This document shows, one piece after another, positions 39,159 through 55,630 of a stretch of 64,000 bases of DNA; positions within the stretch are counted from its first letter, which is position 1; every line of letters starts with the position of its first letter. The translations under genes and the position numbers were made by a program. This DNA comes from Halocaridina rubra (taxonomy: Eukaryota > Arthropoda > Malacostraca > Decapoda > Atyidae): the NCBI GenBank assembly GCA_037179515.1, contig JAXCGZ010007682.1, positions 27,501 to 91,500 on the forward strand. Reading direction: 5' to 3'. The notes beneath the pieces were generated by a model. That model had not been told where the DNA came from, ran no database searches, and was given only the letters and a program-made list of their open reading frames with translations.

Positions 39159-39327
39159 CTTTTACTTTAATTAGTCTTTTAGTTATTTCAGAACAAATAT
39201 TATTCTCCATCTCGAAAAATTCTATGCTAGGTACTGTTCCATCAGTGACTACAAACATCTAATGGTGTTCTTACTAGCCTGTTGAGCAGACAGGGACTTT
39301 GGCATGATATCTATCGTGTTAGACTGT

Positions 39328-40049
39328 TGTCGTATGACTTCCGTCATGCTGAAGCCAGTCCGTCATGCTGAAGCCAGTCCGTCATGCTGAAGCCAGAATC
39401 TGAAACTTGTAACAGATCTTGAGGGGTAACGGTTGGTCGAGGGCACAGAGATTTTATTACAATGTTTGTAGAAAGTGTCAAGGAGATATATGACCGGAAC
39501 CGTGAGACTTAGGATCTGGCATCGAGAAGGGCAGGAAAGGCCAGGAAGTTAGCCATTTCCTAAACCGCAAGAAACATAAGCATGTGGCCCGTACGTAAGT
39601 ACATGCCCTGGAGAGATGCCCAATAGCTCCTCCCCCGGAAGTAGGAGGGATTCCACTTTGAACCTGGCGGTGATTGGCAGGACTAGATATCCCTTGATTT
39701 CATTGGCAGAATTGGATGTCGAGCCACGCCCTGCCCCTGGGGGTATTTCAAGAGCCACCCAGGGCAGACACAGTTAGTTAGAGTTAGAGACCGGGCCTTG
39801 CCAGCAGCAGAGTTAAAACAGTACAGCTGAGTTAGCCTCCCCCTCTTGGGGGTAGGACTCAGGGATTAGTCATGACAGGAACTGTAGTAATAGGAGCTCT
39901 GAGTACATAGATGTTAAAATAAGAATAAACTGTGAATAAGAAGATGTCTTTCACCAACCACGCTACCATAATTATAAGTATATATACGTAGGAGGAAAAT
40001 CCCTACGTCAGTGGTGACTCTCGGTGGGATAATGAAAACCCCTACGTCA
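39328..40049 (+). repeat. 5' LTR of copy 1
   Basis: Begins TGTCGTATGACTTCCG with three 19-bp repeats (CCGTCATGCTGAAGCCAGT) in U3. It contains AATAAA-type signals (AAGAATAAACTG) and ends CCCTACGTCA. Compared with the LTRs of copy 2 it lacks about 108 bp after TTTTATTACA. Confidence 0.93.
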
Positions 40050-40277
40050 GTGGTGGACAGCTCGGGATCAATCCACGCCGACACTTTACCGAAGATAAAG
40101 AAAAAAAAAAAAATAGAAGTATAAAAAAAAATATATAGCATCTATGGAAGAAAAGTACAAGTGAAGAAACTTCAAGACGCTTACCAGCAGTGAGAGAGTG
40201 ACACCGAGAAAGTCAGAGCTCCCCCTTCACTTACAGTATCATATTATGAGATCCAGCCACTCTCCCCCGCCTCCGTA

Positions 40278-40670
40278 TTGGCAAGGCCCCCACCCCGTGC
40301 CCTGGTTGTAAAGACGCCTCGAATCAAAAATTCACTTTTATACCTCGACGGCGCAAATGTAAAAGACCGTGAATGTCCGTCCATAATTCCCGCGACCGAC
40401 TTCCTGAAATACTTGGGTCTGCGGATGAGAAGTGACGAGTGCTCAAATAGAGAATATTATAAAACTTTGAAGGAACTATTCCTAAGATATTTCTTAGTAA
40501 GCCGAAGTGTGACCGGAGCATTGAGTGAAAATGCCCATTACAAGAAGTATAAGTTGCCGGATCCGACCAAGAAGACGGCGATTCGTCGATTTTACTCGAA
40601 GAGAAGAAGGAGAACCCCTCCTTCCTTGCCTTCTGCCATGAAGTTCTTCAGGACCACCTCCTTAAAATAG
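40278..40670 (+). pseudogene. remnant of the gag-position ORF in copy 1
   Basis: Homologous to residues about 117-249 of the ORF in copy 2 (RALVVKTPR, DFLKYLGLRMRSDE, LKELFLRYFLVSRSVTGALS, FYSKRRRRTP). It has no ATG, because the sequence corresponding to the N-terminal 117 residues is replaced. A C-run of four where copy 2 has five changes the last ~20 residues. No known domain recognised. Confidence 0.75.
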
Positions 40671-54090: not shown

Positions 54091-54840
54091 TCACAAGTAC
54101 TTAGCTATTTTAAGGAGGTGGTCCTGAAGAACTTCATGGCAGAAGGCAAGGAAGGAGGGGGTTCTCCTTCTTCTCTTCGAGTAAAATCGACGTATCGCCG
54201 TCTTCTTGGTCGGATCCGGCAACTTATACTTCTTGTAATGGGCATTTTCACTCAATGCTCCGGTCACACTTCGGCTTACTAAGAAATATCTTAGGAATAG
54301 TTCCTTCAAAGTTTTATAATATTCTCTATTTGACCACTCGTCACTTCTCATCCGCAGACCCAAGTATTTCAGGAAGTCGGTCGCGGGAATTATGGACGGA
54401 CATTCACGGTCTTTTACATCTGCGCCGTCGAGGCATAAAAGTGAATTTTTGACTCGAGGCGTCTTTACAACCAGGGCACGGGGTGGGGGCATGTCCTGCT
54501 GCGTTCCCTGTGTCACCACGGGGCTCGGAGCGGCAGGCTGTTCGTCGATGTTTGAGGCGTCGGTTTCTCTGTCGGCGTCGACCAAGTTCCTTCTCGACGG
54601 AGCGGCGTCGGCAGGAGTTTGTAGGCGCCACACGTGCTCCTCCAGTTCGAGAATTCTCCGGTGTTTGGCCTCGTCACTCATTTCTTGAATTGGGAGATGT
54701 TGGATTTCTGCTTTTGCCATTCTTATTTTCTTTTCTTTGCACTGGTTTCTTCTGATATGAGAGTCTCTTTGTATGTTTTCCAGGCGTGATGATCCGTACT
54801 GCGCTGCCACCAAGTTGTCGTATGAATTTTGGACTTCCAT
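54091..54840 (-). CDS. gag-position ORF of LTR element copy 2 (249 codons, function unknown)
   Basis: This frame sits where gag is expected. Its ATG lies within the LTR: the first 25 bases are U5 sequence, also present in the other LTR. Residues about 20-60 are charged and probably helical (HIRRNQCKEKKIRMAKAEIQ, SDEAKHRRILELEEHVWRLQ). A low-complexity Ala/Pro segment follows, then a region shared with copy 1 (DFLKYLGLRMRSDEWSNREY, LKELFLRYFLVSRSVTGALS) and a basic tail (KKTAIRRFYSKRRRRTPS). I see no CCHC knuckle, protease or major homology region, so calling it Gag would be a guess. It could be a nucleic-acid-binding structural protein or a remnant. Confidence 0.6.
   Translation of the reverse strand: MEVQNSYDNLVAAQYGSSRLENIQRDSHIRRNQCKEKKIRMAKAEIQHLPIQEMSDEAKHRRILELEEHVWRLQTPADAAPSRRNLVDADRETDASNIDEQPAAPSPVVTQGTQQDMPPPRALVVKTPRVKNSLLCLDGADVKDRECPSIIPATDFLKYLGLRMRSDEWSNREYYKTLKELFLRYFLVSRSVTGALSENAHYKKYKLPDPTKKTAIRRFYSKRRRRTPSFLAFCHEVLQDHLLKIAKYL
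54802..54812 (-). promoter_or_regulatory. primer binding site of copy 2 (tRNA-Leu type)
   Basis: TGGTGGCAGCG on the element strand, three bases inside the LTR. Eukaryotic tRNA-Leu with 5' end GGTAGCG ends CGCTGCCACCA, giving an 11-base match. Copy 1 has TGGTGGACAGC, with one inserted A. Confidence 0.7.
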
Positions 54841-55626
54841 TTGAACTCACACTTTGTAAGATGACTGGGTTATCTCACCGTTTGTCACCACTGACGTAAT
54901 GTTAAATTACTATGTTATAATTATTAGTACCAGACGGGTACAAGGTAAGAATGGACAAGCAGTGATTCCTTTATCTTAATTTATTCTAGAGTACAACATA
55001 TTCGACGCCTCAATGCCCCCACCCTATGATTAACTCAAGTCTCTGATCTATTCGTGCCCCTGGCAAAGTTCTAACTAACCGTGTCTGCCCTGGGTGGTTC
55101 TTGAAATACCCCCAGGGGCAGGGCGTGGCTTGACATCCAATCCTGCCAATGAAATCAAGTGACATCTAGTCCTGCAAATCAACGCCAGGTTCGAAGTGGA
55201 GTCCCTCCTACTTCCGGGGAGGAGCTATTGGGCATCTCTCCAGGGCATGTACTTACGTACGGGCCACATGTTTGTGTTTCTTGTGGTTTAGGAAATGGCT
55301 AACTTCCTGGCCTTTCCTACCCTCTCCAGGTACTCGATGCCAGATCCTAAGTCTCACGGTTCCGGTCATATATCTCCTTGACACTTTCTACAAACATTGG
55401 CCGTACCGCAGAAAACAAGCCTCCCACATTAGTTCCAGGTGCCTAGCCATAAATCTTGGTGGTCCCATGGGAAACATGGTCTGCACCCAAAACTCAATAA
55501 AAGTGAGGGCATGTAATAAAATATCTGTGCCCTCGACCAACCGTTACCCCTCAAGATTTGTTACAAGTTTCAGATTCTGGCTTCAGCATGACGGACTGGC
55601 TTCAGCATGACGGAAGTCATGCGACA
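54816..55626 (-). repeat. 5' LTR of copy 2
   Basis: 811 bp, with terminal TGTCGCATGACTTCCG at 55626 and CATACGACA at 54816. Flanked by AATA. Confidence 0.93.
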
Positions 55627-55630
55627 AATA

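What the first reader, a model, noticed from the sequence alone, without database searches (positions are those of the whole stretch)
39324..55630. Two young, polymerase-less LTR retrotransposons in opposite orientation, 588 bp apart
Both elements have intact LTRs (722/722 and 811/811 bp), perfect 4-bp duplications (CTGT; AATA), primer sites and polypurine tracts, yet neither interior encodes RT, RNase H, integrase or protease. This is the layout of a large retrotransposon derivative (LARD). LARDs are best described in plants; a crustacean family with a tRNA-Leu-type primer site, a gag-position ORF that starts inside the LTR and 10-bp inverted LTR ends may be undescribed. As an inverted pair they form about 7 kb of homologous arms that could make long dsRNA or recombine.
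Basis: partly seen in the sequence, partly recalled or inferred. Interest (0 to 1): 0.75.

Follow-up and report, generated by a model that had tools for sequence, protein, structure and literature searches.

The report
Pol-less Gypsy retrotransposons in a crustacean
Two neighbouring jumping elements that have lost their copying enzymes belong to a large, young family in what is probably a crustacean genome, and the same genome holds enzyme-coding relatives with the same ends that probably move them; it is a well-resolved example of a known kind of genomic parasite rather than a new system.

Summary
A (39328-47430, +) and B (48023-55626, -) are complete LTR elements with exact 4-bp duplications, LTR pairs differing at 2 of 722 and 1 of 811 bases, a tRNA-Leu-type primer site, a shared polypurine tract and no detected RT, RNase H, protease or integrase domain. 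They are two insertions from different source copies (96.5% alike, different LTR 3' ends); a mirrored assembly copy is very unlikely. The assembly was searchable: the polypurine-tract/LTR junction occurs 1,447 times. The missing partner exists. Ty3/Gypsy elements with Gag, PR, RT, RNase H and IN carry the same junctions, and 23 of 150 scored pol pieces lie in open frames of 1,300 codons or more. The "gag-position ORF" is a shortened piece of that family's Gag; an integrase-tail remnant survives. So these are LARD-like derivatives probably mobilised in trans: known in kind, new as a family. Less usual: in 31 of 32 A- or B-type loci the LTR contains an older LTR-end/primer-site unit, not seen in the stretches read of three pol-bearing copies, and some related loci hold copied primer tRNA. 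LARD-like elements are in print for honey bee and mosquito.

The parts
39324..39327 (.). Target duplication CTGT, left of A (right copy 47431-47434)
   Evidence: Read directly
39328..40049 (+). A, 5' LTR, 722 bp
   Evidence: 99.72% to 46709-47430
40004..40016 (+). Buried LTR-end/primer-site unit TACGTCAGTGGTG inside A's LTR, 39 nt before the active one at 40043-40055
   Evidence: Pattern search, 8 matches with up to 2 mismatches in the window (7 of them exact) against 0.61 expected; same in 12 of 12 A-type loci, A itself included
40051..40069 (+). A, primer binding site region, TGGTGGACAGC..., imperfect tRNA-Leu type
   Evidence: Read directly; tRNA assignment from recalled tRNA-Leu
40194..40667 (+). 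A, Gag-derived open piece without start codon, frame-shifted near its end
   Evidence: tblastn to partner Gag, 43.5% over 108 aa, E 2.7e-18
42157..42297 (+). A, remnant of integrase C-terminal tail
   Evidence: tblastn 59.6% over 47 aa, E 8.5e-12
44161..44667 (+). 507-bp insert present in A and not in B, ends in (AAC)n; likely a 5'-truncated non-LTR retrotransposon
   Evidence: A/B alignment; nature of the insert judged by eye, no Pfam hit
45086..45487 (+). A, 25-bp minisatellite, about 350 bp longer than in B
46697..46708 (+). A, polypurine tract GGTTGGGAGGGA
46709..47430 (+). A, 3' LTR, 722 bp
48019..48022 (.). Target duplication AATA, left of B (right copy 55627-55630)
48023..48833 (-). B, 3' LTR, 811 bp
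   Evidence: 99.88% to 54816-55626
48834..48845 (-). B, polypurine tract GGTTGGGAGGGA
50839..52402 (-). B, non-coding interior shared with the region downstream of pol in the pol-bearing relative at C1622
   Evidence: blastn 90.4% over 1,575 columns to L051
52427..52621 (-). B, remnant of integrase C-terminal tail
   Evidence: tblastn 66% over 65 aa, E 2.2e-20
54091..54840 (-). B, 249-codon ORF starting inside the LTR: shortened Gag without zinc knuckles
   Evidence: 54% over 181 aa to the Gag piece of a pol-bearing copy, with a 26-residue gap
54802..54812 (-). B, primer binding site TGGTGGCAGCG (11 nt of tRNA-Leu type)
   Evidence: tRNA assignment from recalled tRNA-Leu
54816..55626 (-). B, 5' LTR, 811 bp
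54886..54898 (-). Buried LTR-end/primer-site unit TACGTCAGTGGTG inside B's LTR
   Evidence: same in 19 of 20 B-type loci

Best explanation
A and B are two independent, recent insertions of a non-autonomous, LARD-like derivative of a Ty3/Gypsy retrotransposon family. An ancestor lost most of gag and nearly all of pol but kept what is needed in cis: LTR promoter and ends, a tRNA-Leu-type primer site, a polypurine tract, and a leader with the first part of gag. Its RNA is most likely packaged, primed by tRNA-Leu, copied and integrated by Gag and Pol supplied in trans from pol-bearing members of the same family that share the same end sequences. Shown: structure, small LTR divergence, high copy number, absence of detectable pol, sequence kinship with pol-bearing relatives, shared junctions. 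Inferred: supply in trans, packaging, current activity. A and B belong to two subfamilies that differ in the 3'-LTR/leader module. The inverted arrangement is two insertions landing close together, not a unit of its own.
For: Complete LTRs and exact duplications. 40 scored copies of the ORF region at 98-100% (of 2,149 candidates) and 40 of the A-type leader at 94-100% (of 1,277); 1,447 exact purine-tract/LTR junctions, 0 for the reversed pattern. Of 20 copies fetched for ORF similarity 13 show two LTRs; of 10 resolved at both ends by script 9 have a duplication, 8 of exactly 4 bp, with 0-4 LTR substitutions. None of the 20 has a match to the RT, RNase H or protease pieces at E 1e-5, and all 20 have the Gag piece. 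Pol-bearing relative at C1622: RVT_1 1.2e-8 and 3e-14, RT_RNaseH_2 4e-22, rve 1.2e-13, above curated cut-offs; Gag, zinc-knuckle, protease and H2C2 hits at E 0.0003-0.007, below cut-offs, with two CCHC motifs read by eye. Pol pieces on C192 and C474 lie about 5.3 kb from an exact purine-tract/LTR junction on the same strand. Pol pieces on C2125 and C249 lie 2,582 bp downstream of B's exact 21-nt LTR-end/primer junction; C2125 was read there. C192's LTR end is 92.7% to B's over 262 columns and its gag 81% to B's ORF over 379.
Against: No direct proof of movement or packaging. About 1.4 kb of the interior (roughly B positions 1628-3006 from its start) has no clear counterpart in the copy at C1622 apart from one weak 85-column match, so a simple internal deletion does not explain all of it. 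The pol-bearing copy read furthest (C1622) is broken by in-frame stops and a frame change, and the pol piece at C249 holds a stop. The four contigs with both a junction and pol come from capped lists (100 of 1,447 and 100 of 201 junctions; 150 scored of 5,470 pol candidates), so how common the linkage is remains unknown. The clade within Ty3/Gypsy was not placed. The 20 copies were chosen by similarity to B's ORF, and the 12 A-type loci end before RT would lie, so neither is a random test for pol.
Confidence: 0.92

Rival explanations
1. A strict, orphan LARD family of unknown origin with no recognisable master element, as the first reader thought possible and as reported for coding-less elements in Culex.
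For: No retroelement Pfam domain in the interior pieces scanned; the ORF's only relatives found in the protein collection are two Halocaridina rubra gene models, in searches limited to certain protein lengths and shared 5-residue words.
Against: Gag and integrase-tail homology to pol-bearing relatives with the same junctions.
Confidence: 0.04
2. One arm of the pair is an assembly mirror image of the other.
For: About 6 kb of inverted arms at 96.5% identity, a classic source of misassembly.
Against: 184 substitutions in 5,304 aligned bases, a 507-bp insert and 350 bp of extra minisatellite in A only, an 81-bp stretch in B only, different LTR 3' ends and different exact target duplications.
Confidence: 0.02
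3. The Gag-derived ORF is under selection and makes a useful protein, so that the elements are helpers or restriction factors rather than passive passengers.
For: Open through to the same stop in all 20 B-type loci fetched, 18 of 20 with the full 251-codon stop-to-stop frame; no indel in 696 nt over 20 sequences; two H. rubra gene models keep the frame at 85-89% identity.
Against: pN/pS 0.86 among 20 B-type sequences and 0.96 among 8 A-type loci; the A-type frame has no start codon before its middle in the loci read; the B-type copies were chosen by similarity to this very stretch.
Confidence: 0.1

Closest known systems
LARD (large retrotransposon derivatives)
   Same: LTRs, primer site, purine tract, several kb of pol-less interior shared between copies, target duplications, many copies
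   Different: B-type copies keep a 249-codon shortened Gag ORF, and pol-bearing members with the same ends were found; such elements are described as lacking all coding sequences (PMC3286476, passages)
Coding-less LTR elements of Culex quinquefasciatus (38 families; PMC3286476, passages seen)
   Same: Arthropod host, tandem repeats in a coding-less interior, a tRNA-Leu primer site in at least one; a Gypsy element in the same paper has tRNA copies with CCA at its primer site
   Different: No master copy was found there; here one is
ETn / MusD of mouse (PMC7472051, passages seen)
   Same: Non-autonomous LTR element replicated by a related coding element; imperfect primer sites among abundant copies
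   Different: Retroviridae, tRNA-Lys; tested by assay there, inferred here
TR-GAG elements (PMC8704663, abstract and passages seen)
   Same: LTR element with only a Gag-type ORF, thought to use proteins of relatives
   Different: TR-GAG carries a full Gag (562 aa in the case cited); here 249 codons without zinc knuckles
LTR elements of Rimicaris exoculata and other crustaceans (PMC3587641, passages seen)
   Same: Crustacean Gypsy and Copia elements with tRNA primer sites
   Different: In the main text searched, 'LARD' and 'non-autonomous' do not occur; the primer sites quoted are tRNA-Met and tRNA-Trp type

Membership tests
Ty3/Gypsy (Metaviridae), by descent | Pol in the order PR-RT-RNase H-IN in a member of the family | tested here: met
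   C1622 pieces: RVP 0.0071 (below curated cut-off), RVT_1, RT_RNaseH_2, H2C2 (below cut-off) and rve in that order; met by the relative, not by A or B
Ty3/Gypsy (Metaviridae), by descent | Sequence continuity between A/B and the pol-bearing members | tested here: met
   Gag N-part, integrase tail, about 1.5 kb of 3' interior at 90%, LTR parts at 77% (C1622) and 93% (C192)
Ty3/Gypsy (Metaviridae), by descent | Placement in a named clade by RT tree | not tested
   No reference RT set at hand; a tRNA-Leu primer site suggests the Mag lineage by analogy with Culex, a lead only
LARD | LTRs with primer site and purine tract, flanked by target duplication | tested here: met
   A and B; 9 of 10 resolved copies
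LARD | Large interior conserved between copies, without pol | tested here: met
   20 fetched copies, chosen by ORF similarity; only remnants of gag and of the integrase tail
LARD | No coding capacity at all | tested here: not met
   B-type: 249-codon Gag-derived ORF. The A-type frame has no start codon before its middle. Hence 'LARD-like' rather than LARD
LARD | Mobilised in trans by a partner | not testable with these tools
   Partner with the same junctions found; mobilisation itself not observable
TR-GAG | Complete Gag domain ORF | tested here: not met
   No Pfam hit in the ORF; 26-residue gap and lost 3' part relative to the partner Gag
TRIM | Element under 1 kb | tested here: not met
   8,103 and 7,604 bp; one 2,437-bp derivative exists (L011)

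The most novel reading that the evidence does not exclude
In this family the LTR/primer-site boundary moves. A- and B-type copies carry an older LTR end plus primer-site remnant inside U5 (38-39 nt from the end in A-type, 76 nt in B-type, three stacked units in L025; 31-bp tandem units in L044 and L046), while three pol-bearing copies (C192, C1622, C2125) show a single junction in what was read. B looks like a C192-type end followed by a C2125-type end. Together with loci that hold copied mature tRNA-Leu (with CCA), this suggests that the LTR end grows by reverse-transcription errors at the primer. The abundant copies, pol-less and pol-bearing alike, end up with a short primer match (about 11 nt, against 20 in rarer relatives), which could let them escape silencing by tRNA 3' fragments while still being primed. 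Against it: L047, a diverged copy of pol-less type, shows no buried unit, so the feature is not universal.
Probability: 0.27. Interest if true: 0.6.

Novelty: new member of a known kind. Interest (0 to 1): 0.4.

Why it matters
In the mosquito paper seen here, pol-less LTR families were reported without a master element. Here derivative and pol-bearing relatives sit in one assembly with shared junctions, so cross-mobilisation, packaging specificity and the trade-off between tRNA priming and tRNA-fragment silencing could be studied in an invertebrate. It also warns gene annotators: two Halocaridina rubra gene models contain this element's ORF. Otherwise it is ordinary genome parasitism.

Tried and rejected
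A captured host gene in the ORF (a BEN-domain resemblance by eye): no Pfam or PDB sequence match, single-sequence model of mean pLDDT 50.6, not usable, no fold search made; replaced by Gag homology. tRNA genes or RNA families in the window: none. A tRNA-Leu gene of the host to compare with the primer site: that pattern search did not complete, so the tRNA identity of the site rests on recalled tRNA-Leu sequence and on the tRNA-like runs in L041, L048 and L050; ARAGORN found no whole tRNA in L041, L043, L048 or L050, and cmscan gave no tRNA hit there. Counts of the A-type and of the simple junction did not complete, nor a genome search with the Gag. Literature: LARD with LTR retrotransposon and crustacea gave 3 papers, none on the point by title and abstract start; shrimp with LTR retrotransposon, non-autonomous and primer binding site gave none; six phrasings of tandem or duplicated primer sites gave 21 papers, 15 listed, of which one by title concerns endogenous retroviruses (PMC11962862, listing only, not opened). 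The library is open-licence only, so absence there is weak. Other listings were used only to pick papers.
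Full report
What is there. Element A (39328-47430, +) and element B (48023-55626, -) are complete LTR elements. LTR pairs differ at 2 of 722 and 1 of 811 bases; target duplications CTGT and AATA are exact; purine tracts and primer sites are in place. The interiors align colinearly at 96.5% (184 substitutions in 5,304 aligned positions, leaving out the insert and the minisatellite), with a 507-bp insert and about 350 bp more minisatellite in A and an 81-bp stretch in B only. 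Two duplications, different LTR 3' ends and this much divergence mean two insertions from different source copies; a mirrored assembly copy is very unlikely.

Mosaic structure. From about 39790 to 40286 (3' part of the LTR, primer site, leader, start of the ORF) A and B are only 55-61% identical, while most 300-column blocks on both sides are 92-99% (one with a poly-A run is 88.6%). A's 3' LTR part instead resembles a third, rearranged LTR at about 30392-30980 (90.6% over 318 columns). The A-type module is itself abundant: 40 scored hits at 94-100% of 1,277 candidates. So two subfamilies share interior and U3 but differ in the 3'-LTR/leader module; template switching during reverse transcription is the likely cause (inference).

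Family size and youth. The assembly (1.18 Gb, 21,031 contigs; window at C6600:27501-91500) has 40 scored copies of B's ORF region at 98-100% (2,149 candidates) and 1,447 exact copies of the 20-nt purine-tract/LTR junction, 0 for the reversed control. B's 21-nt LTR-end/primer junction occurs 201 times, control 0. I fetched 20 copies from the ORF hits: 13 of 20 show two LTRs; of 10 resolved at both ends by script, 9 have a duplication (8 of exactly 4 bp, one in a TA repeat; L015 has none), with 0-4 substitutions between LTRs of 651-831 bases. L011 is a 2,437-bp derivative that keeps little beyond the ORF.

The ORF. B's 249-codon ORF starts inside the LTR. It has no Pfam or PDB match. In a collection of 5.8 billion proteins (two searches, each limited to a range of protein lengths and to shared 5-residue words) it matched only two gene models of the shrimp Halocaridina rubra: a 201-aa partial model (89% over 123 aa) and a 739-aa model whose last 216 residues are this ORF (85% over 220 aligned columns). 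Among 20 B-type sequences (B and 19 of 20 loci; L024 dropped because the start motif was not found) there is no indel in 696 nt and pN/pS is 0.86. Among 8 A-type loci (of 12; L029, L031, L032 and L040 left out for length or truncation) pN/pS is 0.96. The low ORF divergence (0.8% against 6.7% in the next 760 bp) is at least partly a selection effect, because copies were chosen by similarity to this stretch; in A-type loci, chosen by the leader, divergence also tends to rise with distance. I see no evidence of purifying selection on the protein in recent copies.

The partner. A perfect 20-nt tRNA-Leu-type primer site occurs 40 times exactly and 118 times with up to one mismatch, 0 for the reversed control. 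Of the ten loci returned (eight distinct places), L042 (C1622) carries a related LTR, the perfect site and then a Gag ORF and a protease. The next 5 kb (L051) hold RT, RNase H and integrase, then the same non-coding 3' interior as A and B (90.4% over 1,575 columns to B). This copy is broken by in-frame stops and a frame change. Its RT/RNase H piece gave 150 scored genome matches of 5,470 candidates; the first 41 rows have no stop in the piece, and 23 of 150 lie in open frames of at least 1,300 codons (one of 5,196, probably inflated by masked bases). So intact-looking copies exist. Contigs C192 and C474 carry such a piece about 5.3 kb from an exact purine-tract/LTR junction on the same strand. 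Contigs C2125 and C249 carry B's exact junction 2,582 bp upstream of the piece; the one at C249 contains a stop. All these lists are capped (100 of 1,447, 100 of 201, 150 of 5,470), so I cannot say how often the linkage occurs. Short stretches of C192 show an LTR end at 92.7% to B's, primer site TGGTGGCAGCG, and a Gag whose first part is B's ORF (81% of 379 columns; 54% over 181 aa with 26 residues missing from B). C2125 (L054) shows B's junction, 95% over 84 columns of LTR and 77.5% over 209 columns of leader. The pol-less elements also keep a remnant of the integrase tail (66% over 65 aa in B; seen in 6 of 20 fetched B-type loci). About 1.4 kb of interior remains without a clear counterpart.

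Absence of pol in other copies. At tblastn E 1e-5 none of the 20 B-type loci matches the RT, RNase H or protease pieces, and all 20 match the Gag piece; in seven of the 20 the two-LTR structure is not complete in what was fetched. The 12 A-type loci (A itself among them, 3.3 kb or less) end before RT would lie; nine of them follow A's interior to about position 2430-2470, which is why I call them A-type.

How it works, most likely. A- and B-type RNA is transcribed from the LTR, packaged by Gag of pol-bearing relatives, primed by tRNA-Leu at a short match, copied, and integrated with a 4-bp duplication by their integrase. The structural steps are read in sequence; supply in trans is inferred from shared ends and from the abundance of an A-type subfamily whose Gag piece has no start codon before its middle.

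Primer-site oddities. The LTR-end/primer motif TACGTCAGTGGTG is found inside the LTR of 19 of 20 B-type loci, 76 nt before the active junction (L013, rearranged, is the exception; L014's active junction was not matched by the pattern; L025 has three units), and in 12 of 12 A-type loci, 38-39 nt before it. C192 and L042 show only the active one (278 nt of LTR read in C192, the last 200 nt scanned in L042), and L054 shows one junction in 108 nt of LTR. None of the eight perfect-site loci scanned shows two such motifs, and L047, a diverged copy of pol-less type, shows none; L044 and L046 instead have tandem units of another sequence. So the buried unit marks the abundant subfamilies, not every copy. 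The short primer match is shared by the pol-bearing C192 and C2125. In L041, L043, L048/L049 and L050 the site continues into the reverse complement of a tRNA-Leu-like body. Because CCA is not encoded in eukaryotic tRNA genes (recalled), these look like copies of mature tRNA; the tools did not confirm a whole tRNA. L043 reads LTR end - 39 nt of tRNA type - LTR start. L048 has two LTR 3' ends head to head around a tRNA-type palindrome; it scores below cut-off against several hairpin models, among them mir-607 (67.8 bits, cut-off 94) and the plant MIR845_1 (57.7, cut-off 81), so the resemblance is not specific. In L050 the anticodon loop reads TTGAGGC, which could be an AAG anticodon with inosine read as G (inference). 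tRNA copies with CCA at a Gypsy primer site are known from Culex (PMC3286476, passages). Imperfect primer sites dominating abundant copies are discussed for mouse ETn, MusD and IAP; the same review says that Ty3 strictly inherits its own primer site rather than the tRNA copy (PMC7472051, passages), which contrasts with the copied tRNA seen here.

Host. The opsin gene at 8189-9307 matches decapod opsins best (unnamed 85%; best-scoring named Macrobrachium nipponense 74%, H. rubra 72%), so a decapod crustacean, probably a caridean shrimp, is likely; the species is not established.

Verdict. Real, young, and explained: LARD-like derivatives of a Ty3/Gypsy family whose pol-bearing members are in the same genome. 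New as a family as far as these searches go, known as a kind.

Noticed in passing
window 30167-30980: Third, rearranged LTR of the family: an inverted piece of the 3' interior (30344-30167) just before a purine tract and an LTR (from 30392) whose 3' end holds several LTR-end/primer units.
   Followed up: partly
L048 1484-1594: Two LTR 3' ends head to head around a tRNA-Leu-type palindrome; the hairpin scores below cut-off against several miRNA models, MIR845_1 among them.
   Followed up: partly
L043 around the primer-site match: LTR end, 39 nt of tRNA type, then an LTR start: a two-LTR junction with copied primer.
   Followed up: partly
L041 and L050 after the primer site: Primer site continues into a tRNA-Leu-like body; anticodon loops read as TTTAGGC (UAG) and TTGAGGC (possibly inosine-edited AAG).
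   Followed up: partly
L013, 953-1189 and onward: Inverted LTR 3' end joined directly to the leader, a fold-back at the primer site.
   Followed up: no
G000:C340:68941-74789: Seven purine-tract/LTR junctions 971-972 bp apart on one strand: a tandem array of very short derivatives.
   Followed up: no
G000:C8631:2993-15975: Three LTR-end/primer junctions 6,480 and 6,482 bp apart on one strand: tandem copies, probably sharing LTRs.
   Followed up: no
Halocaridina rubra SK128_004791 (P0123): 739-aa gene model whose last 216 residues are the element's Gag-derived ORF, joined to an N-terminal part without Pfam match: exonisation or an annotation error.
   Followed up: partly
window 2567-3903 and 55874-57204: Second inverted pair, 97.5% identical, outside A and B; non-LTR retrotransposon type, RVT_1 in the right copy.
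   Followed up: no
window 8189-9307 (-): Opsin gene in a single open frame; best-scoring named relative Macrobrachium nipponense rhodopsin-like, 74%.
   Followed up: partly
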